Of a stretch of 64,000 nucleotides of DNA, positions 1,508-54,748 are shown piece after piece; position 1 is the first letter of the stretch, and each line of letters starts with the position of its first letter. Source of the DNA: a virus. Location of the stretch: IMG/VR virus record IMGVR_UViG_3300019889_000007, positions 24,763 through 88,762 of that record, one strand, 5' to 3'. A program made the translations under genes and the position numbers. The notes under the pieces were generated by a model. That model ran no database searches. It saw nothing but the letters and a program-made list of their open reading frames with translations, and was not told where the DNA came from.

Positions 1508-2557
1508 ATGGCTTCCAAGAAGAAGACACTTTCAATCAATCTGGTTGCCGAGCCCGGTCAAAAGCTTCCCAAAGAACTCAGGAACATCAAGATCTCCTGG
1601 CAGTTTCTCAACAATGAGTACGGCCGGAAGTTGTTGGAAAAGAACGAGGGCAACCGGAACATTTCCGAAGCGTCGGTACGTAAGTACAACTCTGACATGA
1701 AAGACGGTAAGTGGTGGACCAACGGCGACGCCCTCCGGATCGACAACACCGGGAACCTTATGGACGGCCAACAACGTGCCACCTCCGCTGCCCGGCTTGA
1801 GGACCCCGCCGTTGGTCACTGGACGTTGCAGGCCGCCGGGTTGGACCCCAAAGTAAGACCGACAATAGATGTCGGTCGACCGCGATCGTTCGCCGACGAG
1901 CTGAAGTTCGAAGGAGAAGAGAACACCACTGTCCTGGCGGCCGTCATCAAACGGGCTTACGCCTGGGAAGCCATCGGAGAACGATGGGACGTTTTCAGGG
2001 TCGCGCCGAGCCATCAAGCCATGATGGAGTATTTCAGGGGCGACGAAGAATACGGGCTGCCGGATAACCGTGAACTCCTGCGGTGGGCTGCCGGAGAAGC
2101 AGCGGCGGCACAAAGCCAGATCATAGGCAAAATGGCACAGTCCACATTCGGGTTCCTGCTGTATCTGACCACAATGTACGGCGACAAGGAGAAAGCCCGA
2201 CAGTTCTGGGTCGACGGGGTCCGCGAACTGGACGGCATACCCAAAAAACACCCGGCGCACCGCCTTCGTAAAAGGCTGGGAGAAATCACCGACAGCGATC
2301 TGACAGGTAGGAACCGGCGCCTAGACCAACCCGAGACCCTGGCCTACTGCATTCAAGCCTGGAATGAGTTCTGGACAGGGGAATGGGAGTCAGCCACCAC
2401 TATCAGCAGACCGCGCGGAGGATGGTCACGCGAGAACATGCCCATCCTGCTTCCCAAGGACAACCGTGGCTACCCGGACGGCCCGAACGCAAAGCCCAAA
2501 GATGGGTGGAGCCCCAACCGAGAATTCATCGTCGGTGACGAAGAAGGATGGGATTAA
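1508..2557 (+). CDS. ParB/Srx-like (sulfiredoxin-fold) phage protein
   Basis: 349 residues. The N-terminal third has the layout of the ParB/Srx-like proteins common in actinophages: residues ~40-90 carry a NRNISEASVRKYNSDMKDG segment, then GDALRIDNTG and the signature LMDGQQR (equivalent to LLDGQHR), then IDVGRPRSFAD. The rest is helical and unassigned. Relatives are usually annotated as ParB-like nuclease domain proteins; the biochemical role is not established. It sits between SSB and RecT, which suggests DNA metabolism. Confidence 0.7.
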   Translation: MASKKKTLSINLVAEPGQKLPKELRNIKISWQFLNNEYGRKLLEKNEGNRNISEASVRKYNSDMKDGKWWTNGDALRIDNTGNLMDGQQRATSAARLEDPAVGHWTLQAAGLDPKVRPTIDVGRPRSFADELKFEGEENTTVLAAVIKRAYAWEAIGERWDVFRVAPSHQAMMEYFRGDEEYGLPDNRELLRWAAGEAAAAQSQIIGKMAQSTFGFLLYLTTMYGDKEKARQFWVDGVRELDGIPKKHPAHRLRKRLGEITDSDLTGRNRRLDQPETLAYCIQAWNEFWTGEWESATTISRPRGGWSRENMPILLPKDNRGYPDGPNAKPKDGWSPNREFIVGDEEGWD

Positions 2558-2560
2558 CCA

Positions 2561-2881
2561 GTGAGGTTCTACAAAGTCATCGTCGACTACGGTGACGACG
2601 ACGAGACGATGGAAGGTTCCTTCTCCGACGTCAACGCGGCCCTGACCACTGCCGACGACAACATCGCCTGCGACGTTGACGAACTTCTCGACAACGAGAA
2701 GGACCCGTATATCTTCGCTCACCAGCATGCCCCTGACCGGCTCGACCGGCACGGGAAACTCCAGCTGGCATGCCCGGACGGCCGCATAATCACCGTCCTG
2801 GCCGAAGACATCGAAAAAAGCCCTACACAGACGGTTCAAACCGGTGCCGAACCGGCAGAAGAATGGCCGACCATGGGTTAG
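2561..2881 (+). CDS. Hypothetical acidic protein
   Basis: 106 residues, starting at GTG three bases after the previous stop. Acidic throughout (DYGDDDETMEG near the start), with a predicted beta-rich N-terminal half. It is the last gene before a strong terminator at 2895-2935, so it closes the SSB operon. No family is recognised. Confidence 0.65.
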   Translation: MRFYKVIVDYGDDDETMEGSFSDVNAALTTADDNIACDVDELLDNEKDPYIFAHQHAPDRLDRHGKLQLACPDGRIITVLAEDIEKSPTQTVQTGAEPAEEWPTMG

Positions 2882-2894
2882 ATAGTGACATTGG

Positions 2895-2935
2895 AAAAGC
2901 GCCGAGATTGAATATGGATCTCGGCGCTTTTTCGT
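2895..2935 (+). terminator. Rho-independent terminator
   Basis: AAAGCGCCGAGAT and ATCTCGGCGCTTT form a 13-bp stem around a short loop, followed directly by a T run. It separates the SSB operon from the recombination operon. Confidence 0.9.
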
Positions 2936-3001
2936 ACACTAAAATGTCGTACCTGCCCTGCATGCTCAGAGATAAGCTTCAATTTAGGAAGGATCGATCT
3001 G

Positions 3002-4042
3002 GTGACTATCGACACCGAGACAAAAGAATCTGAAGGCACACTGAGGTACATCATGCGGGGTTATGACGGACCCCGAGATATCCAGTCGCAAAGAGCACTG
3101 GCCACGATGTTGTCCGACTCCGATATGTTGGGCGACAGGTACCACAGGAAGCCCGCCAACATTGTTCGTATGATGTGGAAAGCCATGGCGATGGATATCC
3201 CATTGGATACCACGCTGGAACAGGTCGGTGAGTACAAGGGCAAAACCTGCGTCACCAACGCGTTGATGCTGGCGTTGATGCGTCGTGGCGGTTTGACGGT
3301 TGACGTTCAAAAACGTGATGAAACCGGGACGCTCCTTCTGATCACCCGGCCCGGTCACAAGCCTGAACAGGTCGGATACACGATGGAGGACGCCGAGAAG
3401 GCCGGGCTCGTGGATGACAAGAATGTACGTACCGGCGGGACCATCAAGTCTCAGTACAAGCTGCGTCCCAAGACGATGCTGTTCTGGCGGGCGGTGGCCG
3501 AGGCGTCACGAATGTGCGGGTCCGACATCACCAATGGTCTGAGCCTGTACACCAGGGAAGAGCTGGAGGCCATCCCCGACGAAGAGGTCATCGCACAGGC
3601 CGTCGACACACCCGGTGCGGCGCGATTGGACATCAACACCATCTTGGGTGAGGCTGTCACCGCGCAGAGCAAATTCGACAAGGCGATGTGGGAAGACGCC
3701 TGGCGTAAAGCAGCGGCGGCCGGGCTGATGGATCTGGCCGCTGACCTTAAAGACCCCGAGTCGTTGAAGGTCGGGGAAGAGCTGACGATCATCGGTAAGA
3801 ACATCGTGGAATCGTTGAAGGAACTGGAAGAATTCGGTTTCAACCACCTCCACACCGGTTCGGACAGTGAACTGTGGAATACCGCGATCACCGGTTGCAC
3901 CACGCTTCAGCAGATCGATCTGCTGAAGCTGTACTCCAAAGCCTGCGACATGGGCGACAGGTACAAGGCCGCGATCGGGAAGCAGCGTGAACAGCTCGCA
4001 TCCGCCGGGATGGTGCCGGAGGCCGATACGGTCGGGGCATGA
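3002..4042 (+). CDS. recT: RecT-family single-strand annealing protein
   Basis: 346 residues from GTG, with an AGGAAGG site upstream. The first ~190 residues follow the RecT pattern: an ANI(V) segment leading to a helix (MWKAMAMDIPLDTTLEQV), a GKTCVTNALMLALMRRGG strand-helix, TYTMEDAEKAGL-like GYTMEDAEKAGL, and a YKLRPKTMLFWRAVAEASR segment, in the order seen in RecT proteins. It is expected to anneal complementary single strands. It overlaps the downstream nuclease gene by ATGA, giving a RecE/RecT-like pair. The C-terminal ~120 residues are variable. Confidence 0.85.
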   Translation: MTIDTETKESEGTLRYIMRGYDGPRDIQSQRALATMLSDSDMLGDRYHRKPANIVRMMWKAMAMDIPLDTTLEQVGEYKGKTCVTNALMLALMRRGGLTVDVQKRDETGTLLLITRPGHKPEQVGYTMEDAEKAGLVDDKNVRTGGTIKSQYKLRPKTMLFWRAVAEASRMCGSDITNGLSLYTREELEAIPDEEVIAQAVDTPGAARLDINTILGEAVTAQSKFDKAMWEDAWRKAAAAGLMDLAADLKDPESLKVGEELTIIGKNIVESLKELEEFGFNHLHTGSDSELWNTAITGCTTLQQIDLLKLYSKACDMGDRYKAAIGKQREQLASAGMVPEADTVGA

Positions 4043-5169
4043 ACTCAGTGCAGTCGGTCCACCACGCTTCGCAGGAGGCGTGGCGGGACCTCACCACCGC
4101 CCGGACGTTCGATCCGTTCGAGATCCATGTGACGTCTTTGGAGTCCTGCCTGCGGCAGTTGCATTTTCGCGCCACAGGCGAGGCGATCACCGATCCCGAT
4201 ACCTCAACGCCGTCGATGAAGATCGCCGCACACGAGGGCACCGCGATCGATGCCCTGTACGTCCCGTATTTCGCCGCCGCGTGGGCCAAAACCGACCCGA
4301 CATTGGAGGTCGTGCACCCGCACTTCAAGTTGCGGCACGCGCGCGACGGCGTGGCGATCATCGGGGAGTCCGATGTGGTGGCGTTCGGTCCGGACAACAC
4401 CGCGCAGGTGTGGGATCTGAAAACCTGCGAGTACAGCAAGTGGGACGCGTGCGCGGCCGGGGAAATCCCGGACGCGCACGCGTTGCAGGTCATCTGTTAC
4501 GCCCGGCTGATCGAACTTCAGACCGGGCGCCGGGTTACGGACATGCACCTGTACTACCTCGACCGGTCAGACCCCGAGGCGTACAAGGATTTCCGCAGGT
4601 CAGCCCGGTACTTCACGACCAGTCAGACATTCACTGATGCGGATCGTCAGATGGCCGATACACTGTTCGACCGAGTGTTTTCCGCTGCCAAGAGCACCGC
4701 CGAGGCTCCCCGATGGTTCGGGGACGAACGGGGGAAGATCAGCAGCCGGTTCTCGCCCTGCCACAAGTGCCTGTGGCAGACGCGATGCCTGGGAAAACCG
4801 GTTCACGGCCAGGACGCCACCCTGGCCGTCGACGTTGAGGCCGCCGGTCAACTGATCGGTGGCTGGGCCGAGGCACGCACCGACAAAGCGGAGGCGGTCG
4901 CCAAGCTCAAGGACTTCATCCGGGCCGAACTGGACAAAAACAAAAAGTCCAAAGTAGAAGGAAGGTTGAAGGAACTTGTCATAGCCTTGAACCTGGACCG
5001 CGATTTCTACGACGCCGGAAACGGCACCGTCTTGGAACTGTACGACAAACGCGGCGGCGAGATCAAAGACCAGGAAGCCATCGAAAAGATCCTCAGCGAT
5101 CTGGGAATCAAAATCCCCACCAAGCCCCGAGCGGACTCGCCAGCACTGCGCATCCGCAAGGACACATAA
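4039..5169 (+). CDS. RecB/Cas4-like PD-(D/E)XK exonuclease with probable Fe-S cluster
   Basis: 376 residues. A SCLRQ cysteine near residue 37, the GESD...VWDLKT core (about residues 110-130; the D and the D-x-K are the nuclease motif) and a C-terminal PCHKCLWQTRC cluster (near residue 240) match the Cas4/AddB-type layout, where one N-terminal and three C-terminal cysteines hold a 4Fe-4S cluster. It should resect DNA ends and produce single strands for the RecT-like protein, whose gene overlaps it by four bases. A terminator follows at 5176. Confidence 0.8.
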   Translation: MNSVQSVHHASQEAWRDLTTARTFDPFEIHVTSLESCLRQLHFRATGEAITDPDTSTPSMKIAAHEGTAIDALYVPYFAAAWAKTDPTLEVVHPHFKLRHARDGVAIIGESDVVAFGPDNTAQVWDLKTCEYSKWDACAAGEIPDAHALQVICYARLIELQTGRRVTDMHLYYLDRSDPEAYKDFRRSARYFTTSQTFTDADRQMADTLFDRVFSAAKSTAEAPRWFGDERGKISSRFSPCHKCLWQTRCLGKPVHGQDATLAVDVEAAGQLIGGWAEARTDKAEAVAKLKDFIRAELDKNKKSKVEGRLKELVIALNLDRDFYDAGNGTVLELYDKRGGEIKDQEAIEKILSDLGIKIPTKPRADSPALRIRKDT

Positions 5170-16099: not shown

Positions 16100-16407
16100 C
16101 GGTCAACCAGCCGTGTGCGTGTGGTTGTCATCCGGTTCAGGTCCAGCGACGGCTGTTCCCGTCGTTCGCGAATTTTCCAGTCCTTCACGCGGCGACACAG
16201 CAATCGATGCTGGCGGCCAGGAAGGTGGCGATGGAAACGTATGACCATCGGAACCTGGTGTTGGCGTATCGGTTCGCCTGCTATTCGTTGACCTACCTGC
16301 GGCAGCATGGTGAAGGCAGTGAGGCGGCTGTTAAGGAGTTGGTCTCGGTCAAGGAACGGCTGGCGACGTTGATTGTTCGCGACTATCTGGAATGGCTTTT
16401 CGCATGA
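16096..16407 (+). CDS. Hypothetical protein upstream of integrase
   Basis: 103 residues. CACGCH at residues 7-12 may bind metal; the remainder is helical with Arg and Ala (TYDHRNLVLAYRFACYSLTYLRQH). It overlaps its neighbours by ATGA on both sides. No family is recognised. Confidence 0.6.
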   Translation: MTVNQPCACGCHPVQVQRRLFPSFANFPVLHAATQQSMLAARKVAMETYDHRNLVLAYRFACYSLTYLRQHGEGSEAAVKELVSVKERLATLIVRDYLEWLFA

Positions 16408-17543
16408 CGACGGCAGAGGATGGTCTGCCCGAGTTGCCCGATCTTGACGTGGGTGGCGGTGAGGTTCTTTCGGGCGAGATCGTTGTCAGCTCGGTCGGGA
16501 AGGTGGTTGCTCGACGAAGGGTGTCGGATCGTCCTGAGCCGCCGAATGCGCTTAAGGCGTTGACGGCGGCGGGGTATGACCTTGTTGTGTCGGGGGTCTC
16601 GGCCAACACACTGCGGGCGTATGAGCGGTGTTGGGGTCAGTTCAATGAGTATCTGGATTCGCGGAAGCTGGGTCGGTTGGATATTGCGCCGACACCGGCG
16701 ACGGTGATCATTGACTGGATGGCGTTGATGCTTCGTACGCCGACCAAGCAAACGAAGATTCCGATGGCGCCATCGTCGGTGTCGCAGATGTTGGCTGCGA
16801 TCCGGTACAAGCATCGTGAGATTCAAGGTTCGGATAAGACGTGGACGGTGCCGCAGTCGTTGTTGCTGACTCAGGCGTATCGGGGGTATTGCCATCAGTG
16901 GCTCGATATGGGGCATCGGGTGCAACAGGCGGAACCGACGTCGTGGGAGGATCTTGAGGTTTATGCGGCGGGGATTGATACGTCGTCCCCTCGGGGTAAG
17001 CGTGATCTTGCGTTGATCTTGTTGTCGTTTTGGATGGCGGCGCGCGCTTCCGACATCAGTGCTTTGTGGACTTCTCCGGGTGTGGACAACATCCGGTTGA
17101 ATGCGACAACGATGCAGTTGTTCCTGCCGTATTCCAAGACGGACCAGGCGGCTGCCGGGCAGTGGGTGACAATACCGAAGTTTGACAAGAATCCTCCATT
17201 GTGTCCTGTCAGATCGGTGCAGGCGTGGCGAGCGGAACTGCTGCAAGTTCGGCCCGAGGCCGGTAAATTGTTCGTGGAGATGCCTGCCGGTTTGCGTTCG
17301 GACTTCTACGCTAAAGGATTTCCTGGCCTTCAGCCGATGGCCGTCAGCGACGTGACGAAACGCTGGGCGAGACGGTTGGGGTTGGGTCAAAGATCGGCGC
17401 ACTCTCACCGTCGAGGTGCTGCGACGCGGGCTCACGAAGCTGGGGCGGATATTCCGCAGATCAAAAAGCTCGGTCGTTGGAAATCTTCTGACACGGTCAT
17501 GAAGTACATCGACGACCAGGCGTTTGAACACCCGTTGGCTTAG
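16404..17543 (+). CDS. int: Tyrosine recombinase / phage integrase
   Basis: 379 residues from the ATG that overlaps the upstream stop (ATGA). A core-binding helical domain (~60-165) is followed by a catalytic domain with Arg214 (MAARASD), a beta-hairpin Lys near 245, the HxxR box at 333-336 (AHSHRRG), Trp359 and nucleophile Tyr368 (VMKYID). All catalytic positions are present, so it should be active. It would integrate the phage DNA into the host chromosome; attP was not located. Usage of GT-rich codons differs from the flanking CC-rich early genes. Confidence 0.92.
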   Translation: MTTAEDGLPELPDLDVGGGEVLSGEIVVSSVGKVVARRRVSDRPEPPNALKALTAAGYDLVVSGVSANTLRAYERCWGQFNEYLDSRKLGRLDIAPTPATVIIDWMALMLRTPTKQTKIPMAPSSVSQMLAAIRYKHREIQGSDKTWTVPQSLLLTQAYRGYCHQWLDMGHRVQQAEPTSWEDLEVYAAGIDTSSPRGKRDLALILLSFWMAARASDISALWTSPGVDNIRLNATTMQLFLPYSKTDQAAAGQWVTIPKFDKNPPLCPVRSVQAWRAELLQVRPEAGKLFVEMPAGLRSDFYAKGFPGLQPMAVSDVTKRWARRLGLGQRSAHSHRRGAATRAHEAGADIPQIKKLGRWKSSDTVMKYIDDQAFEHPLA

Positions 17544-21878: not shown

Positions 21879-22172
21879 TCATGGCCCAGCCTGACGCAGC
21901 ATCTGGGCGTACGTGTACTGCCCGATGCTGGCGGTACCTGAGGGACTGACGATCGTGATCCGGTAGGTGCTGTTCTCCACGCTGCCAGTCGAGTAGATGT
22001 CTTTGCGGATTACCCACGGGGGCGTATCGAGGTGGCACCCGCATTCCAGGACGTACCCGGTGATGACATCACCGGCCACCGTTTGCAGGCGCGTCGTGGT
22101 GGCCTGCGGAAACCAGTGCTGGTTCCCGCAGGCCACACACAACTGGCCACTGGAGCAGGTCAGAACGGCCAC
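21879..22172 (-). CDS. Small CxxC protein downstream of Ro60
   Basis: 97 residues. Begins 13 bases before the end of the Ro60 gene, so it is co-transcribed and coupled with it. CVACGN (12-17) and CGCH (44-47) can form one zinc site; the second half is beta-rich (STYRITIVSPSGT). No known family. The coupling makes it a candidate partner of the Ro60-Y RNA complex. Confidence 0.65.
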   Translation of the reverse strand: MAVLTCSSGQLCVACGNQHWFPQATTTRLQTVAGDVITGYVLECGCHLDTPPWVIRKDIYSTGSVENSTYRITIVSPSGTASIGQYTYAQMLRQAGP

Positions 22173-23815
22173 ACGGCGTCCTTACCACTCTCCAGGGCCG
22201 GGATCATTCCGAAGGCCGCATCGGAAAGTCCACCGAAAACGTACCGGTTGGGCGTATCGGGTAGATGCCCGAACTTGTATCCGCCCAAGTTCCACGTGTA
22301 AATCGGGATGTTCGCGGGCACGACGTCGTCGATCTTCTTCGGGACGTCCATGACGACCCGGCCCATGTGGTCGAAACGTCGCCGCGTCTCGGCCCAGTAC
22401 CGGCTGGCCACACTCAACGCCTGAGTCCACCCCGGATTGGTCTGCTCATCGGTGATGATGACGACCCGGTCATGCTTGTCATAGGTCATGACCACCGCCA
22501 GCTGCGTATCGGTACCGCCCATGTTGCTGAACTTGCCCATCGTGCGCAGCACCGAGTCGCCACGGGTGAACGGGATACGTTGATGGGCCGTGCCGTACTG
22601 GTACAGGTCAGCCGCCTCGGCACGCAACGCGATCACCGACCCGAACAGGCTGGCTTTCTCGTTCAGACCGAGCTGCTTATGGTTGCCGCCGTAGCCGTAC
22701 GGGAACATCGAGCTGGACTGGTCCACAAGCACCAGGGTCCGGCCATCGAAAGCTGGCACGCTCGACACTGACACCGCCAGGGCTTTCTCCAGGTACTCGC
22801 CCCATCGCAGCGACCCGACGTTCTTGTGCGCCGAGTAGAACCGGAACGGCAGCTGCCGGGACCGTTTGATCTGATCGGCGCTGGCCAGGCGGTCCTGCAC
22901 CTGCCGGATCGCGGCATCGGGGAGTCCGGCCTTGTCGAAGTTCGCGAGGTTACGGATGAGCGCCATGATCCCCATCGACGGGATCGTGGCTTCCCACATT
23001 TTCTTTTGGCTCGCACCGATTTGCCCGGCCATGGAAATGGAGTCTTCCCACGTCAATCCGGCGTCTGCCAGTTTCGTCGACAGGGTTTGCACGGTGACGT
23101 TGTCGATGCCTTCGGCCAGGATCGCTTTACGGACGGCCCGGTTGGTCCACACCTGCCCCAGGATGCCCAACGGCACGGGAGTGTCAGGGTTGGACCGGTG
23201 CTTGGCAATGTACCGGAACAGGGACGACTGCTCTGCTGAGGCGGGTTTTGGGTGGACCAACGCGATGACGTCGGCGAACCGGAACGTGTTGTTCCGGGAG
23301 TCCCACTTCAAGAAGTTGAACTGCGTGTACAAGCGCCGGACGGCATCGGCGATACCGCGTTTGATCGGCTGCGGGATCTTGCGGCCGTACTTCGTTGTCC
23401 AGTACGCCAGGGCTTCAGCGGGCTCGTCAGCGCGCACTATCACCGAATCGATGAGCTTTCGGCCGCCCGGCAGGCCCGCGATCCGCATCGCGTCGGCCGC
23501 CTCCACCGCACCCACCAACGACGCCGAACGCATGTTGGCCTTATTGCGTAGCCACGGTAGGAACCGGGCGATCCACTCCGGGTCCACCACGGCCACGGCC
23601 TGAATCAGATGCCGGTACCGGTTGTCACGATGATCGGCCGCCTCATAGAACGCTTCGGTGGACACCATGTTCGACACGGCCAACAGAAACAGTTCAGATC
23701 GGGGGTCCCGCGAATAGGCGGGCGCGTTGTGGAAGTTACGGCCGTCGGCGACCGCCGATCCCCTGATCGGTGACTTCTGCCGGACGGCAGCGCTGGCGGT
23801 GTTGAACTTACCCAT
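22160..23815 (-). CDS. rsr: Ro60-like RNA-binding protein (TROVE + vWA)
   Basis: 551 residues, the length of bacterial Ro60 (Rsr). Residues ~20-350 are the TROVE HEAT-like ring (ELFLLAVSNMVS, AEALAYWTTKYGRKIPQPIKRGI, FRFADVIALVHPK, WEDSISMAG). Residues ~360-551 are a von Willebrand A domain with an intact MIDAS: DQSSS at 365-369, Thr435 (GGTDT) and Asp456 (ITDEQT). Bacterial Ro60 binds Y RNAs and misfolded RNAs and works with nucleases such as PNPase. Three YrlA-like RNA genes lie directly upstream on the same strand, followed by this ATG, so the locus is a complete phage-borne Ro ribonucleoprotein. Confidence 0.93.
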   Translation of the reverse strand: MGKFNTASAAVRQKSPIRGSAVADGRNFHNAPAYSRDPRSELFLLAVSNMVSTEAFYEAADHRDNRYRHLIQAVAVVDPEWIARFLPWLRNKANMRSASLVGAVEAADAMRIAGLPGGRKLIDSVIVRADEPAEALAYWTTKYGRKIPQPIKRGIADAVRRLYTQFNFLKWDSRNNTFRFADVIALVHPKPASAEQSSLFRYIAKHRSNPDTPVPLGILGQVWTNRAVRKAILAEGIDNVTVQTLSTKLADAGLTWEDSISMAGQIGASQKKMWEATIPSMGIMALIRNLANFDKAGLPDAAIRQVQDRLASADQIKRSRQLPFRFYSAHKNVGSLRWGEYLEKALAVSVSSVPAFDGRTLVLVDQSSSMFPYGYGGNHKQLGLNEKASLFGSVIALRAEAADLYQYGTAHQRIPFTRGDSVLRTMGKFSNMGGTDTQLAVVMTYDKHDRVVIITDEQTNPGWTQALSVASRYWAETRRRFDHMGRVVMDVPKKIDDVVPANIPIYTWNLGGYKFGHLPDTPNRYVFGGLSDAAFGMIPALESGKDAVWPF

Positions 23816-32731: not shown

Positions 32732-33466
32732 ATGTACACACGACCAAAACCCTTCATCGTTGCTGGCTTCTCCAGCAAGGCCAACGTCGGTAAAACCAGC
32801 TGGATCATCATCATGGCCTGGTACCTCAGCGCCAAATACAACGTCCAGGTCCACGACGCCGACCCCGAACACGAGTCACTGACCCGGTGGCTCAACACCA
32901 TCAAAGAGCTGCCCGGAATGCCGCCCGTGCCATTCGAGTGGAAAAGCGCCATCGGCGAAAGCCAGATCGAACAGATCCCCGCGACAGCCGAGGCCGCCAA
33001 AGCGGACATCGTGTTCGTCGACATCGGTGGAGGTAGAAGCAAGCTGGCCACGGCCGCCGCTAAGTTCGCTGACCTGATGGTCGTGGTCACCGGCGAATCA
33101 GTCCTGGAAAGCATCACCGTCGACGACGCATTCGATGCCATCGCCCTCGGTGAGAAGAAGCGCACCGACAAGCTGGCCAAGGCGGTTCTGCTGACCAAGA
33201 CACCACCCAACGCCACCAACATTGTCCGGACGCTCCAGGACGACTACCTCGAAGCGCAGGAACTGGACAACGTTCCCGAGGAAGACCGCATCGGCGTGTT
33301 CGATTACCCGTTCCCCGGCCGCAAGGCATACATGCTCTTGGGAATGCGCCACCCCGTCGAGGTGGGTATCGACCTGTCCGACGGCACCGACATCAAAACC
33401 ATCGAGATCGCCAACATGGCCAGGGAGATCGAAGAAGCCATGGAAATGGAGACGCCCAGTGCGTAA
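32732..33466 (+). CDS. ParA-family ATPase
   Basis: 244 residues, ATG with AAGGATT upstream. Residues ~13-24 hold a deviant Walker A (SKANVGKTS), then a QVHDADPEHESL switch, and IVFVDIGGG as the Walker B-like strand. Together these fit the ParA/MinD superfamily. Possible roles are plasmid-like partitioning of the phage genome or positioning of another complex. The next gene overlaps by 8 bases and is Pro/Ala-rich, and 34186-34247 is a GC repeat that could be a centromere site. Confidence 0.7.
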   Translation: MYTRPKPFIVAGFSSKANVGKTSWIIIMAWYLSAKYNVQVHDADPEHESLTRWLNTIKELPGMPPVPFEWKSAIGESQIEQIPATAEAAKADIVFVDIGGGRSKLATAAAKFADLMVVVTGESVLESITVDDAFDAIALGEKKRTDKLAKAVLLTKTPPNATNIVRTLQDDYLEAQELDNVPEEDRIGVFDYPFPGRKAYMLLGMRHPVEVGIDLSDGTDIKTIEIANMAREIEEAMEMETPSA

Positions 33467-47417: not shown

Positions 47418-49040
47418 CTACGCTTGAGTTGAGTAGGTGACCCGCGCGGTCATGCCAGTCGGATCGGATGGGTCGGCGTCGACTTCGGCGGTCATCCCGC
47501 CCGGTGTGCTGGTGCCCCAGGTCGCCAACGCGGTCATCCCGGTCGGGTCGGCGGGGTCTGCGGTGACCGTCAAGGTCAGCTCCCCGGCGCCGCCGCCGAT
47601 GACGGCGTCCGTGGTGGCCATGGCCAGCGGGTTCTGCACCGACCGGACGGTGATCTCGTAGGTGCCGTTGGCCGCGTAGGTGTGGGAAACGGTGCCGCCG
47701 TCAGTGGTCGGCCCGGACGAAGAAGTGCCGTCACCCCAGTCGACAGTGGTCAGGCCGTTGCCGTGGTTGTCGACGGTCAACACGACGTCCATACCGGTGA
47801 CGACTGCGGCGATGATCGGGTTTTCCTGCGTCGGCAGGATGACGGTCTCGGTGTCGTAGTAGACCGGCTGTTCGACGCGGGTGGCCTTGATCTGGTAGAC
47901 CCCGGCGCTGGCGTAGCAGTGCTGCATCTCCAGTGGAGTGGCGCCGTCTGCGGTGGCCAGGCTCGGTGGTGTCCCGTCACCCCAGTCGACGCTGACGCGT
48001 CCATCGGAGTGCGGCGGCATGACGATCGTGGCGTTGACGCACATGTTGTTGGTGGCGTCACCGGCGACGGTCAGCTGCGGGTTGTCGTCGGGCAGCGGAA
48101 TGATGACGTCGCGGCAGACCGAGATGACCGGGGTCTGCTTGTCGGCGACACAGATGGAGTAGGTGCCGTCGACGGTGTAGCAGTGGGTGGCGACCGAGCA
48201 GTCCGGGAACTCCTCGGGTGCCGATCCGTCGCCCCAGTTGACGGTGACCGGGCCGTAACCGTGGTTGTCGATGATGACGCGGACACAGTTGCCGGTGTCG
48301 TTCGACGGATCGCGGTCGATGATGAGGCTGGCCGGTTCTGGGATGGGGCGCGGCAGGTTGACACAGCCACCGGTCACCGCTGGCGGCTGAACGTTGGTGG
48401 TGATGTCCAGAAGCTGCGAGTTGTCGTTCATCGGGTCGCGCAGCACGCTGGGCAAACCATTGACGATGTCTACAAGGTACGGTCCCTTGCGCCATCCGAC
48501 GGGGGCCGTGGTCGTACCGTTGAAAGTGAAAGTGGTCGCGTCGTTGGCGATGATGATTTCGCCCGGCACCGCACCGACCAGGCGCGGCGTCAGCAGGTAC
48601 CGGAATCCGCCCTGCGCGCCAGGCCCGCACTGAACACTGGAAGATCCGGCCGAACCGGTGTTCCCCCAGACCTCAAGGGCGAATCCGGTGTCACAGACCA
48701 GGGACCCGACGACCTGGAAACCCTTGATGTTGCCGAAGTCGTCGTAGTACGGAATCCATGATGGATACATCATCAGGATGATGCAGGGGTCCACGGCGCA
48801 GAACTGAATCGCGACGGTCCAGTTCGTGATCGACGCGCACGGCGCCGGGGCGCTGATGCACTGCTCACCGGCGAAGTTCAGGACACTGATGCCCTCACCT
48901 TCTTCGGTGTTCGGCGTATAGGTGACCTGAATGAGCCCCTTGGTCACCGCCATGGAACCCGGCCCGTAGACGGGCCTTCCCAGTGCGTCGAGCTTGGTGA
49001 AACGCGCAACGCGTCCGCGTACAATGGAGCTTTCAGCCAT
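47418..49040 (-). CDS. Major tail protein with C-terminal PKD-like repeats
   Basis: 540 residues. The first ~230 match actinophage major tail proteins (SIVRGRVARFTKLDALGRPVYGP, FIQVTYTP, EEGEGISVLNFAGEQC, WTVAIQFCAVDPCI, FALEVWG, RYLLTPRLVG, GWRKGPY). The rest holds three PKD-type repeats: VTVNWGDGS, VSVDWGDGT and TTVDWGDGT, each followed by an H-Y/S-x-x-x-G-Y motif, which suggests glycan-binding outgrowths on the tail tube. It lies upstream of the connectors, earlier than the usual order. Confidence 0.85.
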   Translation of the reverse strand: MAESSIVRGRVARFTKLDALGRPVYGPGSMAVTKGLIQVTYTPNTEEGEGISVLNFAGEQCISAPAPCASITNWTVAIQFCAVDPCIILMMYPSWIPYYDDFGNIKGFQVVGSLVCDTGFALEVWGNTGSAGSSSVQCGPGAQGGFRYLLTPRLVGAVPGEIIIANDATTFTFNGTTTAPVGWRKGPYLVDIVNGLPSVLRDPMNDNSQLLDITTNVQPPAVTGGCVNLPRPIPEPASLIIDRDPSNDTGNCVRVIIDNHGYGPVTVNWGDGSAPEEFPDCSVATHCYTVDGTYSICVADKQTPVISVCRDVIIPLPDDNPQLTVAGDATNNMCVNATIVMPPHSDGRVSVDWGDGTPPSLATADGATPLEMQHCYASAGVYQIKATRVEQPVYYDTETVILPTQENPIIAAVVTGMDVVLTVDNHGNGLTTVDWGDGTSSSGPTTDGGTVSHTYAANGTYEITVRSVQNPLAMATTDAVIGGGAGELTLTVTADPADPTGMTALATWGTSTPGGMTAEVDADPSDPTGMTARVTYSTQA

Positions 49041-50919: not shown

Positions 50920-52866
50920 TTACGGAGTAACCGGGGCGCACTGGGTGCGCTGGTCGGTTCCGGACAGACCGTTCGGGCAGAGGTTCAGTGTCAGGAGCAT
51001 CGACCGGCCACAGCGTGTGCAGACAGCGAAACCCTCCTCTGTGAACAGTCGAGTGTAGACGTTTCGCTCCAGGCCGACGGAGTCGTAGACCCCGGCCAGC
51101 GTGATGACGTCCTGCTGGAGACCGAAGAACGTGCCCGGCTCGTACAACAGGATCTGCACCTGAGTCGGCCACTGCGACGGCACCGATCCGCCGAAGGACG
51201 TGTCGTCCTGGTCGGCCATCGCGTCCTGCCAGTCGTAAACGTACTGAATGGACACTCCGCGATCCCTGAACCAACGGTCGAGCGCGGCATCAGCACCCGC
51301 ACCCCACCGATCGTCGATCCCGAGCTTCTTGGAGATATCGGCCCGCAGGATGCCTCGCAGCCAGTACGGCGCGATGGCCTCCAGAGTCGCCGAACGAGAC
51401 AGACGACCGGAGTACCGGAAAAACTCCACCTGGAGTTCCAGCACGGACAGGACAGTCTCGAAAGCACCGGGACCATGTGGGTCGAAAATCGACGCTTCCT
51501 GCGGGAACGCCGGTGCCGGAACGGTCAGCGAATAGGTCGCCAGCGCCGCCATCCGACGGATGCGTTCAGCATTCATCTTGTGGGCGTGGGCGAGCATCGC
51601 CAGCTCGACGAACTCTTCGACCTTTTCAGGCCAACCACGCTCAGTGAGGATGGGCTGACGCAAACAGATGCCCGAGATGTCCATGCGACATTCGTCGAGG
51701 TCAGCAGGGCACGGCACGTCATAGCACGGCTTCAAGACACCGGCGATGGCATCCACTTCGGTCTGAATGAAACCGACGTTCTGCCAGATCGCCGCGAAGT
51801 CAGGCTTACCGGAGTACTTGATGCCGCCCCGGCTGGCCGTGATCGTCGGAAGGTCGACCATGCCGTCATTACTGACAGTAATTGGGCATGTGTCGTAGAG
51901 GAATTCTGATGGCGCACACCAGCCTCCAGCTGCGATAAGACCCTTATCGCCCCCCGGCAGATTCCGGACATTGGTGACGGCGTCGACCTTGACGTGGTCA
52001 CCGTCACCCGAATAGAACAGGTGGTCCGGTGCTTCACGTCGGATCGATGCCAGCTGCTGCTGGATACCAGGCGCCTGCGAACGCGACACCATGGTCATAC
52101 CGGCCAGGACCGCTTCGGACACCTGCTTCATGTCGGAAAGCTCTTGGCCAGCCCGGTAACCCGGAAGGTCACCCGATGCCACGATGGAGTACTTGATCCG
52201 GCGCGGATCGGAAGAGGATTCGGCGGTGGGTGCGGGCACGACGTTGGCCAGCGGCACTGTCTCGCGGCGGCCGTCAGCGGTCACCGGCGAGTTGGCCGCA
52301 GCAGGTACAGGCTCCAACTCAACATCAACTTTCTGCTCGGCGACCACAGCAGGTGCCACGGGCGCGGTATCGGTGGCGGCAGGAGCGGGCGCCGTATCGA
52401 CGGCCGGTTCCTGTGCTTGCGGCGCGGCCTCGGTGACGGCCTGTGCCGTCTGAGGTGCGGGCGTTTGTACGGCGGCCGAGGCGTCGGCCAGTTTTTGAGT
52501 GGCGGCCTTGGCGCGCTCGGTGCGTGCGGGTACCTCTTCGACGACCGCCGAGGAGGCGGCTACCGGCTCGGCTGCGGCTTCTGCGATGTCCATCTCGACG
52601 GCGTCTTCGGCATCGCCGCTGTCTTGCTCGTCGATTCGCTCGGACACGATGGCGATCAGCTGGGCGACGATCTCGGCTTCAGCGATCTGCTCGTCGGTCA
52701 TGTCCTCCGGCGCGATCGTGGTCAGATCGGCAGCGCGATTGGACAGTTCTTCTTGGATGGCGGCCAGGTCTACATCAGGACCGGACAGCAGCTCATCGAT
52801 CTTGGTGGCCAGCTGCTCTGGATCACTGATCTCAGCCAGAGCGGCGAGGATGTCTGCCAGAGTCAT
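50920..52866 (-). CDS. Scaffold/major capsid fusion protein
   Basis: 648 residues. Residues 1-~230 are acidic, Ala/Pro/Glu-rich (SDPEQLATKIDELL and a low-complexity stretch), the scaffold-like delta domain. Residues ~240-640 are the capsid shell with motifs of actinophage MCPs: GDKGLIAAGGWCAPSEFLYDTCP, TASRGGIKYS, FPQEASIFDPHGP, WPTQVQILLYEPGTFFGL, DSVGLERNVYTRLFTEEGFAVC. The protease upstream would remove the delta part. Confidence 0.88.
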   Translation of the reverse strand: MTLADILAALAEISDPEQLATKIDELLSGPDVDLAAIQEELSNRAADLTTIAPEDMTDEQIAEAEIVAQLIAIVSERIDEQDSGDAEDAVEMDIAEAAAEPVAASSAVVEEVPARTERAKAATQKLADASAAVQTPAPQTAQAVTEAAPQAQEPAVDTAPAPAATDTAPVAPAVVAEQKVDVELEPVPAAANSPVTADGRRETVPLANVVPAPTAESSSDPRRIKYSIVASGDLPGYRAGQELSDMKQVSEAVLAGMTMVSRSQAPGIQQQLASIRREAPDHLFYSGDGDHVKVDAVTNVRNLPGGDKGLIAAGGWCAPSEFLYDTCPITVSNDGMVDLPTITASRGGIKYSGKPDFAAIWQNVGFIQTEVDAIAGVLKPCYDVPCPADLDECRMDISGICLRQPILTERGWPEKVEEFVELAMLAHAHKMNAERIRRMAALATYSLTVPAPAFPQEASIFDPHGPGAFETVLSVLELQVEFFRYSGRLSRSATLEAIAPYWLRGILRADISKKLGIDDRWGAGADAALDRWFRDRGVSIQYVYDWQDAMADQDDTSFGGSVPSQWPTQVQILLYEPGTFFGLQQDVITLAGVYDSVGLERNVYTRLFTEEGFAVCTRCGRSMLLTLNLCPNGLSGTDQRTQCAPVTP

Positions 52867-53009: not shown

Positions 53010-53095
53010 GAAGTGCGCACTTCAGACAAATGAACAGACAAATCGGGATAAATCAGCCGGGAACAACGCCACAAGTTCACATGTATACTTGTGGC
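53010..53095 (+). promoter_or_regulatory. Palindromic operator/promoter of the RHH-MazF gene
   Basis: A -10 TATACT at 53084-53089 is 6 bases before the ATG at 53096, so the transcript would be leaderless. GCCACAAGT (53068-53076) and ACTTGTGGC (53087-53095) form a 9-bp inverted repeat across this -10, and GAAGTGCGCACTTC is a 14-bp palindrome at 53010-53023. Expected antitoxin autoregulation sites; inference. Confidence 0.6.
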
Positions 53096-53608
53096 ATGTC
53101 CAAGAATGTTCGCCTAGACGAATCCATCTACGACCGAGTCATGACCATTCAGCGACCCGGCGAGTCCATATCCGACACCCTCGAACGAATCCTGAACGAC
53201 TACCGACCATTCGGAGAAAACATGACCACCAAACTGCGCCAGGGCGACGTTCTGAAGTTCTGCCCCACCGCCGTGGATGAGACAACCCCCGACACCGCAT
53301 ACGACCAACTCGGTGTCCTGATCTCCAACGAGATGCTGCACAGCATCGGCACCTTCATCGTGTGCCAACTGACGCGATCAGAAACCAAATACAACGAGCT
53401 CTACGAAGATCTGGATTCCAGCCAGCAGAAGTACAGCCACGGCGTCATCCGCTATATCGCCAACATCGACGACGTCGATTACGACGCAGTCGCCTACCTA
53501 GTGCATTCCATTGTCGACGACCAAATCGAGTCGGACATCGGATTCCAAATCGATGCCCAAGACATCGACACCCTCGGTAATGCCCTGACCATGGCTATCG
53601 GCAAGTAA
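53096..53608 (+). CDS. Ribbon-helix-helix antitoxin fused to a MazF/PemK-like toxin
   Basis: 170 residues. Residues 1-42 (NVRLDESIYDRVMTIQRPGESISDTLERIL) match VapB/RHH antitoxin heads. Residues ~46-170 read as a MazF/PemK fold: RQGDVLKF strand, LGVLISNEMLHSIGTFIVCQLT (the conserved V-x-S-N core and the following strand), then a long helix with a SIVDDQIESDIGF strand and DIDTLGNALTMAIG helix. An internal ATG at 53222 (residue 43) has its own GGAGAAAAC site, so a free toxin could also be made. Would act as an RNA endonuclease with tight self-inhibition. Confidence 0.6.
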   Translation: MSKNVRLDESIYDRVMTIQRPGESISDTLERILNDYRPFGENMTTKLRQGDVLKFCPTAVDETTPDTAYDQLGVLISNEMLHSIGTFIVCQLTRSETKYNELYEDLDSSQQKYSHGVIRYIANIDDVDYDAVAYLVHSIVDDQIESDIGFQIDAQDIDTLGNALTMAIGK

Positions 53609-53723
53609 CAGACAGACCGGGCCACCATCGTCTACAACCAGGCGAGTGGCCGCCACAAACTGCCAGGCTCCTCTGGCGTACAAAAAGTTCGAGCCGCGTC
53701 TACCGAAGACGCGAAACGAACAT

Positions 53724-53762
53724 CGGGCCGCCCGGCTTTCGTAGGGTCAGCGGGGCGGCCCG
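53724..53762 (+). terminator. GC-rich hairpin terminator
   Basis: CGGGCCGCCC and GGGGCGGCCCG pair with a ~17-base loop after the RHH-MazF gene. No T run. Confidence 0.6.
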
Positions 53763-53817
53763 TTCACGTCTGGAATGGCATCCTTGAAACTCATCCACCT
53801 CAAGGAGAAACGTCGGC

Positions 53818-53958
53818 ATGAAAACTGCGACCACCGATGACGGGAACTCGCATCTGTCGTGGGTCAGGACCATCCCGATGTTCCTGGCACTGGCCCTGGC
53901 CAGTCTCCAGATTGTCAGTTTCGTACTGGCCTGCTTGTTCACGTTGGTGCGGCACTGA
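53818..53958 (+). CDS. 46-residue membrane protein
   Basis: An AAGGAG site lies 11 bases before the ATG. The N-terminus (MKTATTDDGN) and WVRT block are almost the same as those of the next gene, so they are paralogs. One TM helix (FLALALASLQIVSFVLACLFTL). Confidence 0.55.
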   Translation: MKTATTDDGNSHLSWVRTIPMFLALALASLQIVSFVLACLFTLVRH

Positions 53959-54006
53959 CATCGATACCCCTGCGATATCCATCTACCTGAAGGAGAAACA
54001 ACGACC

Positions 54007-54228
54007 ATGAAAACCACGACAACCGACAACAAGGATCTGTGCCCGCCGTGGGTCAGGACCGTCCAAGTGGTGTTGTCACTGGCCCTAGGCGGTGTCCAGT
54101 CGGCAAACTTCTTGAACAGCGATGGCTACGATCAAGAGCTTGGCATGTTCGTCTGCCTCAACGCCGCCCTGGTACTGGCGGCACCCGCCGTCATCAACTT
54201 CCTGAAGGTCCTACGGCGTACCGACTAA
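54007..54228 (+). CDS. Small two-TM membrane protein (paralog)
   Basis: 73 residues. MKTTTTDNK...WVRTVQVVLSLALGG shares the start with the 53818 gene; even the leader (GAAGGAGAAACAACGACC) is similar. Two TM segments (~14-30 and ~48-62). Tandem duplication with divergence. Confidence 0.55.
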   Translation: MKTTTTDNKDLCPPWVRTVQVVLSLALGGVQSANFLNSDGYDQELGMFVCLNAALVLAAPAVINFLKVLRRTD

Positions 54229-54229
54229 C

Positions 54230-54457
54230 GTGGCCGACTTCGAACCCAAGCCAGCTAGGCGGGTACCGTGCCCGTTCTGGGTCTTGGTCACCGTCGGTGT
54301 CACACAGGTCGTCCTGGCCATCGGCCAGTCGATTCTCTTGCTCACCGAGTTCGGATACAAGTCGAATATCAAGTACGTGATCATCGCGATCATGCTGACA
54401 CTGTGCACGGTCATCCCGTTGACCAGTAAATGGTTGAACAGGAAACCCCGCCGGTAA
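54230..54457 (+). CDS. Small membrane protein
   Basis: 75 residues from GTG one base after the previous stop. Two TM segments (VLVTVGVTQVVLAIGQSILLL and IIAIMLTLCTVIPLT) with a basic C-terminus. Likely part of the same membrane cassette. Confidence 0.55.
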   Translation: MADFEPKPARRVPCPFWVLVTVGVTQVVLAIGQSILLLTEFGYKSNIKYVIIAIMLTLCTVIPLTSKWLNRKPRR

Positions 54458-54469
54458 CCACAAAGACCT

Positions 54470-54558
54470 GTGTTCCAGCTCCTGTCTGGGGAGCTGGAAC
54501 ACGGTCTAAAATGTTGATGGTGGTCCCACCGGTGTTGCTTAACGGTGGGACCACCATC
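54470..54558. terminator. Two consecutive hairpins, convergent terminators
   Basis: GTGTTCCAGCTCC/GGAGCTGGAACAC (54470-54502) and GATGGTGGTCCCACC/GGTGGGACCACCATC (54516-54558), both perfect or nearly so. They isolate the + cassette from the minus late operon. Confidence 0.8.
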
Positions 54559-54565
54559 TTCGTCT

Positions 54566-54748
54566 CTACGCACGGGAACCGGGCGTCACCAGTTTGATCT
54601 CGCCACCATGCGCGGCCTGATGCCGTTTCGCATCCGCCTCGGTGGAATACGACACGGTGAACCCGTTCGACACCACTTGGTACCGCAACCGGCCACCCGG
54701 CGTCCAGTTACTCCCCACACCTTGACTACTCGCATTACAACCGCACAT
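54566..54748 (-). CDS. Small GCN-type Cys protein
   Basis: 60 residues; ATG at 54748 with AGGGGGG upstream. Starts MCGCN, and YQVV...GFTVSY-STEADAKRHQAAHGGEI follows the pattern of small actinophage proteins of the type GCNC... F.. V..... GG. Function unknown; in the head operon, between protease and MCP. Confidence 0.6.
   Translation of the reverse strand: MCGCNASSQGVGSNWTPGGRLRYQVVSNGFTVSYSTEADAKRHQAAHGGEIKLVTPGSRA

What the first reader, a model, noticed from the sequence alone, without database searches (positions are those of the whole stretch)
53010..53608. Antitoxin and MazF-like toxin fused in one ORF with an internal start
A ribbon-helix-helix head is joined to a PemK/MazF-like body, with an in-frame ATG at 53222 that has its own GGAG site. 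The promoter is leaderless and carries a 9-bp palindrome over the -10, the expected RHH binding site. This would give two products: a self-inhibited fusion and a free toxin. It sits in the middle of the late operon on the opposite strand.
Basis: partly seen in the sequence, partly recalled or inferred. Interest (0 to 1): 0.78.

Follow-up and report, generated by a model that had tools for sequence, protein, structure and literature searches.

The report
Phage-borne fused antitoxin–toxin gene
A temperate phage of actinobacteria carries, as a cargo gene beside its capsid gene, the DNA-binding head of a bacterial antitoxin joined directly to its partner MazF-like toxin in one gene; elsewhere the two are separate genes, so it is an unusual, untested single-gene version of a known kind of toxin–antitoxin pair.

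Summary
The gene is 53096-53608 (+), 170 codons. Its first ~38 residues are a ribbon-helix-helix (RHH) head. The rest is a very divergent MazF/PemK-type body. An in-frame ATG at 53222 lies where related toxins start, with GGAG 5 nt upstream. The -10 (TATACT, 53084-53089) ends 6 nt before the ATG, inside a 28-bp near-perfect palindrome (53068-53095).

Direct searches of phages, plasmids, viral contigs and domain libraries found no relative. Six-frame searches of Mycobacteriales genomes did. The RHH head picks out antitoxins that are each followed by a ~100-aa toxin, and the body independently resembles those toxins (21.5 bits; best of 10,000 shuffles 10.3). All 21 relatives read out as gene pairs have two ORFs, mostly overlapping at stop/start; some resemble M. 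tuberculosis MazEF10 (Rv0298/Rv0299).

The window gene is thus a true fusion, within a ~1.5-kb opposite-strand cargo insertion absent from the nearest relative.

"Self-inhibited fusion plus free toxin" is only partly supported. The antitoxin's ~35-aa C-terminal tail, the expected neutralising part, is missing. The catalytic Arg of MazF is missing too. Rv0299 is only marginally toxic. Toxicity, internal initiation and repression remain inferences; both structure predictions failed. New variant of a known kind.

The parts
53068..53095 (.). 28-bp imperfect palindrome GCCACAAGTtcACATGTatACTTGTGGC (putative RHH operator) ending directly before the start codon
   Evidence: 12 of 14 pairs; 7 such places in 64 kb, the others mostly G+C-rich
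53084..53089 (+). -10 element TATACT, 6 nt before the ATG (leaderless transcript expected)
   Evidence: sequence; related locus L200 has TATACTTCCGGT-ATG and many others a -10-like element just before the antitoxin start; no consensus -35
53096..53608 (+). fused gene, 170 aa: RHH head plus MazF/PemK-like body
53096..53212 (+). RHH antitoxin head (residues 1-39), without the C-terminal tail of related antitoxins
   Evidence: PF02697 22.6 bits; alignment with L193, L194, L268 antitoxins
53213..53216 (+). GGAG Shine-Dalgarno-like site, 5 nt before the internal ATG
   Evidence: sequence; background rate 3.7% of internal ATGs
53222..53608 (+). MazF-like body (128 aa) with candidate internal start ATG 53222
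   Evidence: 21.5 bits to toxin-family profile; the ATG aligns with toxin starts of two-gene relatives
53032..54572 (.). cargo insertion (1541 bp) replacing 192 bp of the nearest relative L002, between the upstream small gene and the capsid-gene leader
   Evidence: blastn boundaries; alignment; G+C 0.56 against 0.61 for the window
53818..53958 (+). small membrane protein ORF 1 (46 aa), AAGGAG upstream
   Evidence: hydropathy
54007..54228 (+). small membrane protein ORF 2 (73 aa), similar at its N-terminus to ORF 1, AAGGAG upstream
   Evidence: hydropathy
54230..54457 (+). small membrane protein ORF 3 (75 aa, GTG start)
   Evidence: hydropathy

Best explanation
A cargo (moron) gene of a temperate actinobacteriophage, derived from a two-gene RHH-antitoxin / MazF-like-toxin module of the MazEF10-like kind by loss of the antitoxin's C-terminal tail and of the stop between the genes. 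Proposed working: it is transcribed on its own from the strand opposite the late genes, as a leaderless mRNA starting at ATG 53096. The RHH heads dimerise, bind the 28-bp palindrome over the -10 and repress the gene. The old toxin start (ATG 53222, GGAG) still allows a body-only product, taking over from the stop/start coupling of the two-gene relatives. The long form is thus repressor plus tethered toxin, and mixed dimers with the short form set the amount of active toxin. Shown: the fusion, its family, the missing tail, the palindrome, the start sites as sequence, the insertion. Inferred: repression, two products, any toxicity, the role in the lysogen.
For: RHH head finds two-gene loci L193, L194, L268, L269, L270, each next to a family toxin. 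Body independently matches the toxin profile. Toxin family joins PemK/MazF: 4 of 5 members hit PF02452 at E 8e-4 to 0.024 and profile-profile probability is 97.7%. Leaderless starts are common in the family. ATG 53222 sits at the toxin start position with an SD. Palindrome over the -10. Cargo insertion. Tyrosine integrase at 16392-17543 indicates a temperate phage.
Against: No homologue of the fusion anywhere searched, so conservation cannot support either product. Antitoxin tail absent. MazF catalytic Arg replaced (RRPVLVVSN against DQLGVLISN). Rv0299 not toxic in E. coli, only marginally as a GST fusion (PMC5175181). No consensus -35. No usable structure model.
Confidence: 0.45

Rival explanations
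1. A decayed toxin-antitoxin remnant turned regulator: the fusion tolerated loss of the antitoxin tail because the body had already lost ribonuclease activity. It now acts only as an RHH repressor with a MazF-like dimerisation domain, or does nothing, and ATG 53222 is a leftover of the old toxin start.
For: Missing tail, catalytic Arg absent, relative Rv0299 nearly non-toxic, no relatives of the fusion.
Against: Frame intact with coding-type codon positions over the whole length; the hallmark motif (ISNEMLHS) and C-terminal helix pattern are kept; SD and ATG kept at the junction. The two-gene relatives also lack the Arg, so this is not decay specific to the phage copy.
Confidence: 0.35
2. A fused, prophage-expressed defence protein of the CapRel type: the tethered body is held inactive in the full-length protein and released by a trigger of an incoming phage.
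For: One-polypeptide toxin plus antitoxin part, carried by a temperate phage as opposite-strand cargo; CapRelSJ46, a fused toxin-antitoxin that protects against phages, is a precedent (PMC9712102).
Against: Different toxin and antitoxin families, no sensor domain, RHH head small and tail-less; no PADLOC hit; proximity to the capsid gene reflects the insertion site only.
Confidence: 0.08
3. The fusion is not real in nature: an assembly or sequencing artefact of a metagenomic contig, or a fresh deletion in one phage.
For: Seen once; G000 is a single IMG/VR contig; reads not available.
Against: The junction is short and clean, with an intact frame and an SD at the junction; there is no room for the tail in another frame. 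A small indel error cannot remove ~100 bp of tail.
Confidence: 0.07

Closest known systems
MazEF10 / MazEF-mt10 (Rv0298-Rv0299) of M. tuberculosis and the MazEF10-like loci L229-L232, L243
   Same: RHH antitoxin followed by a ~100-aa divergent MazF-like toxin; toxin motif V-x-V-L-S-N near the start; -10-like element directly before the antitoxin start; no canonical catalytic Arg
   Different: Two genes overlapping at stop/start; antitoxin has a C-terminal tail; found in bacterial genomes. That these loci correspond to Rv0298/Rv0299 rests on the remembered sequences; the Rv records themselves were not fetched.
Unnamed RHH/MazF-like pairs L193, L194, L268 (closest relatives)
   Same: RHH head with 35-38% identity and the same Y-x-PF end of the RHH; toxin core NDMLH matching NEMLH
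   Different: Separate genes; ~34-aa tail after PF; the window body keeps a longer first loop, as in canonical MazF
PemK/MazF toxins (PF02452)
   Same: Order of motifs and C-terminal helix; length of the first loop
   Different: No direct profile hit; R-P of the RPVLVVS motif replaced by Q-L; fused to RHH
Rpn toxin-antitoxin genes-within-genes (PMC10327210)
   Same: One ORF with an in-frame internal start giving a second, C-terminal product (here only predicted)
   Different: In Rpn the short product is the antitoxin; here the short product would be the toxin body; unrelated families
CapRel fused toxin-antitoxin (PMC9712102)
   Same: Toxin and antitoxin parts in one polypeptide
   Different: tRNA-pyrophosphorylating toxin with C-terminal antitoxin/sensor; no RHH head; different order

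Membership tests
MazF/PemK toxin family (PF02452) | Profile score above the curated cut-off | tested here: not met
   No hit for body or whole protein, also at E 10; relatives reach 15-20 bits against 23.1
MazF/PemK toxin family (PF02452) | Homology through intermediates | tested here: met
   Body to two-gene toxins 21.5 bits; those to canonical PemK/MazF profile 97.7% by hhalign
MazF/PemK toxin family (PF02452) | Catalytic Arg in the R-P-V-x-V-x-S motif | tested here: not met
   DQLGVLISN in the window
MazF/PemK toxin family (PF02452) | SH3-like barrel dimer | tested here: inconclusive
   AlphaFold without alignment, pLDDT 37
MazF/PemK toxin family (PF02452) | Sequence-specific endoribonuclease, growth inhibition | not testable with these tools
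   needs bench work
RHH antitoxin (VapB/DUF7557-like) | RHH domain at the N-terminus | tested here: met
   PF02697 E 1.8e-4 on the head, though below the family cut-off; 35-38% identical to antitoxins of two-gene loci
RHH antitoxin (VapB/DUF7557-like) | C-terminal toxin-binding tail | tested here: not met
   About 34 aa in L193/L194, absent here
MazEF10-like RHH/MazF two-gene module | Antitoxin and toxin as separate, mostly overlapping genes | tested here: not met
   21 of 21 loci read out have two ORFs; the window has one
MazEF10-like RHH/MazF two-gene module | -10-like element directly before the antitoxin start (leaderless) | tested here: met
   by inspection of upstream sequences
CapRel-type fused defence toxin-antitoxin | toxSAS domain and C-terminal sensor | tested here: not met
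   no such domain found

The most novel reading that the evidence does not exclude
A one-gene toxin-antitoxin module in which a tail-less RHH-toxin fusion and its internally started toxin body form mixed dimers: the DNA-bound fusion is at once repressor, antidote and reservoir, a gene-within-a-gene toxin-antitoxin with roles reversed relative to Rpn.
Probability: 0.2. Interest if true: 0.7.

Novelty: new variant of a known kind. Interest (0 to 1): 0.45.

Why it matters
MazEF10-type toxins are among the least understood MazF relatives of mycobacteria. A natural fusion that keeps the DNA-binding head but drops the neutralising tail would separate the two jobs of an antitoxin and test whether tethering alone controls the toxin. 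It would also be a phage-borne case of two products from one toxin-antitoxin frame. If neither product is active, it is just a decayed cargo gene.

Tried and rejected
Direct homologue searches: phages, plasmids (one E 0.4 match), viral contigs, genome contigs, 396 Actinomycetota genomes (best hits were acyl carrier proteins and chance), 50 related viral records, 201 genomes of the order of G001: nothing. Pfam, PHROGs, NCBIfam, PADLOC: only the sub-threshold RHH and chance-level matches. A MazF profile from actinobacterial PF02452 loci scored the body only marginally (6.0 bits, best shuffle 5.8), so the MazF claim rests on the intermediates. Pattern and profile scans of viral contigs for the ISN[DE]MLH motif gave only chance matches. 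AlphaFold on the whole protein and on the body without an alignment was uninformative, so no fold search was made. An alignment-based fold was not run because the homologues come from the genome search, which the tool's stated list of permitted sources does not name. The one neighbouring small ORF searched (54007-54228) has no relatives, and none of the three has a family. No earlier report of an RHH-MazF fusion was found in the open-access library, which holds only part of the literature.

Full report
Setting. The window is part of an 88,762-base IMG/VR virus record. Its capsid and head-maturation genes match actinobacteriophages at under 60% identity. A tyrosine integrase at 16392-17543 indicates a temperate phage. 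The gene lies between the capsid gene (50920-52866, -) and the genes upstream of it (-), on the + strand.

Gene model. The frame is open from 53030, but ATG 53096 is the likely start. TATACT at 53084-53089 ends 6 nt before it, and a similar leaderless layout recurs in many of the related two-gene loci, for example TATACTTCCGGT-ATG in L200. Codon-position G+C of 0.56/0.33/0.74 fits a real gene. The 28-bp palindrome 53068-53095 (9-bp arms, central ACATGT, 12 of 14 pairs) spans the -10 and touches the ATG; only seven places in 64 kb score as high. No consensus -35 was found.

What the protein is. Family libraries saw only a weak RHH head, and direct searches for relatives were empty. A six-frame search of 399 Mycobacteriales genomes with the whole protein gave two hits, both to the RHH head. 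In each, the RHH gene is followed at once by a ~100-aa frame containing [IV][AS]NDMLH, like ISNEMLHS in the window body. A genus-level search added three more loci (L268-L270), again with the toxin next door at E 1e-25 to 1e-28. So the head finds the antitoxin, and the body independently resembles that antitoxin's partner. Against a profile of such toxins the body scores 21.5 bits; the best of 10,000 shuffles scores 10.3, and no other window ORF comes near. The toxin family itself joins PemK/MazF: sub-threshold PF02452 hits in four of five members and 97.7% in profile-profile comparison with canonical members.

What differs. In all 21 loci where both genes were read out they are separate ORFs, mostly overlapping at stop/start as GTGA or TTGA. 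Some (L229-L232, L243) look like MazEF10 of M. tuberculosis; that identification rests on remembered sequences, while the naming of Rv0298/Rv0299 as MazEF-mt10 is in PMC12274833. The related antitoxins carry 30-40 residues after the RHH; in the window the RHH ends ...NDYRPFGEN and the toxin start MTTKLRQGDV follows directly. By general knowledge of RHH and MazE-type antitoxins, that tail is what neutralises the toxin, so a self-inhibited fusion is not what the anatomy predicts. ATG 53222 lies where the related toxins begin and has GGAG at 5 nt; 3.7% of internal ATGs in this window have such a site.

Activity. The Arg of the canonical R-P-V-x-V-x-S motif is replaced. The authors of PMC5175181 found no effect of Rv0299 on E. 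coli colony formation and marginal toxicity only as a GST fusion, and pointed to missing catalytic residues. Toxicity of the window body is therefore open.

Location. Against the nearest relative, L002 (91% identical capsid core), window 53032-54572 replaces 192 bp. The insertion has lower G+C (0.56 against 0.61), reads on the opposite strand, and holds three small membrane-protein ORFs besides the fusion; a terminator-like hairpin lies at its far end. This is the usual anatomy of a moron. Relatives L006-L008 have other opposite-strand frames upstream of the capsid gene.

Verdict. The fusion is real in sequence and well placed in a known kind of module. Its mechanism (autorepression, two products, mixed dimers) is inference. 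I put 0.45 on the working model and 0.35 on a decayed module or plain regulator.

Noticed in passing
53818-54457 (+): Three small membrane-protein ORFs in a row; the first two share their N-terminus (MKTATTD.../MKTTTTD..., WVRT) and a GGAGAAAC ribosome-site context, suggesting tandem duplication. No relatives found for the one searched.
   Followed up: partly
32732-33466 (+): ParA/VirC1-like ATPase (PF07015 E 1e-4, below cut-off) in a phage that also has a tyrosine integrase: possible partition function or plasmid-prophage history.
   Followed up: no
L006, L007, L008 upstream of the capsid gene (about 2200-4730, minus strand): Other opposite-strand frames occupy the same site in relatives (weakly DUF6181-like in L006/L007), so the site looks like a recurrent cargo site.
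   Followed up: partly
22160-23815 (-): Protein matching PHROG 850, 'RNA-binding protein', E 3e-42.
   Followed up: no
47418-49040 (-): Structural-region protein with repeated V-x-V-[ND]-W-G-D-G-[ST] motifs, as in PKD-type repeats.
   Followed up: no
L193, L194, L268-L270: A divergent RHH/MazF-like two-gene family in Mycobacteriales that no NCBIfam model names as a toxin and that falls below the PF02452 cut-off.
   Followed up: partly
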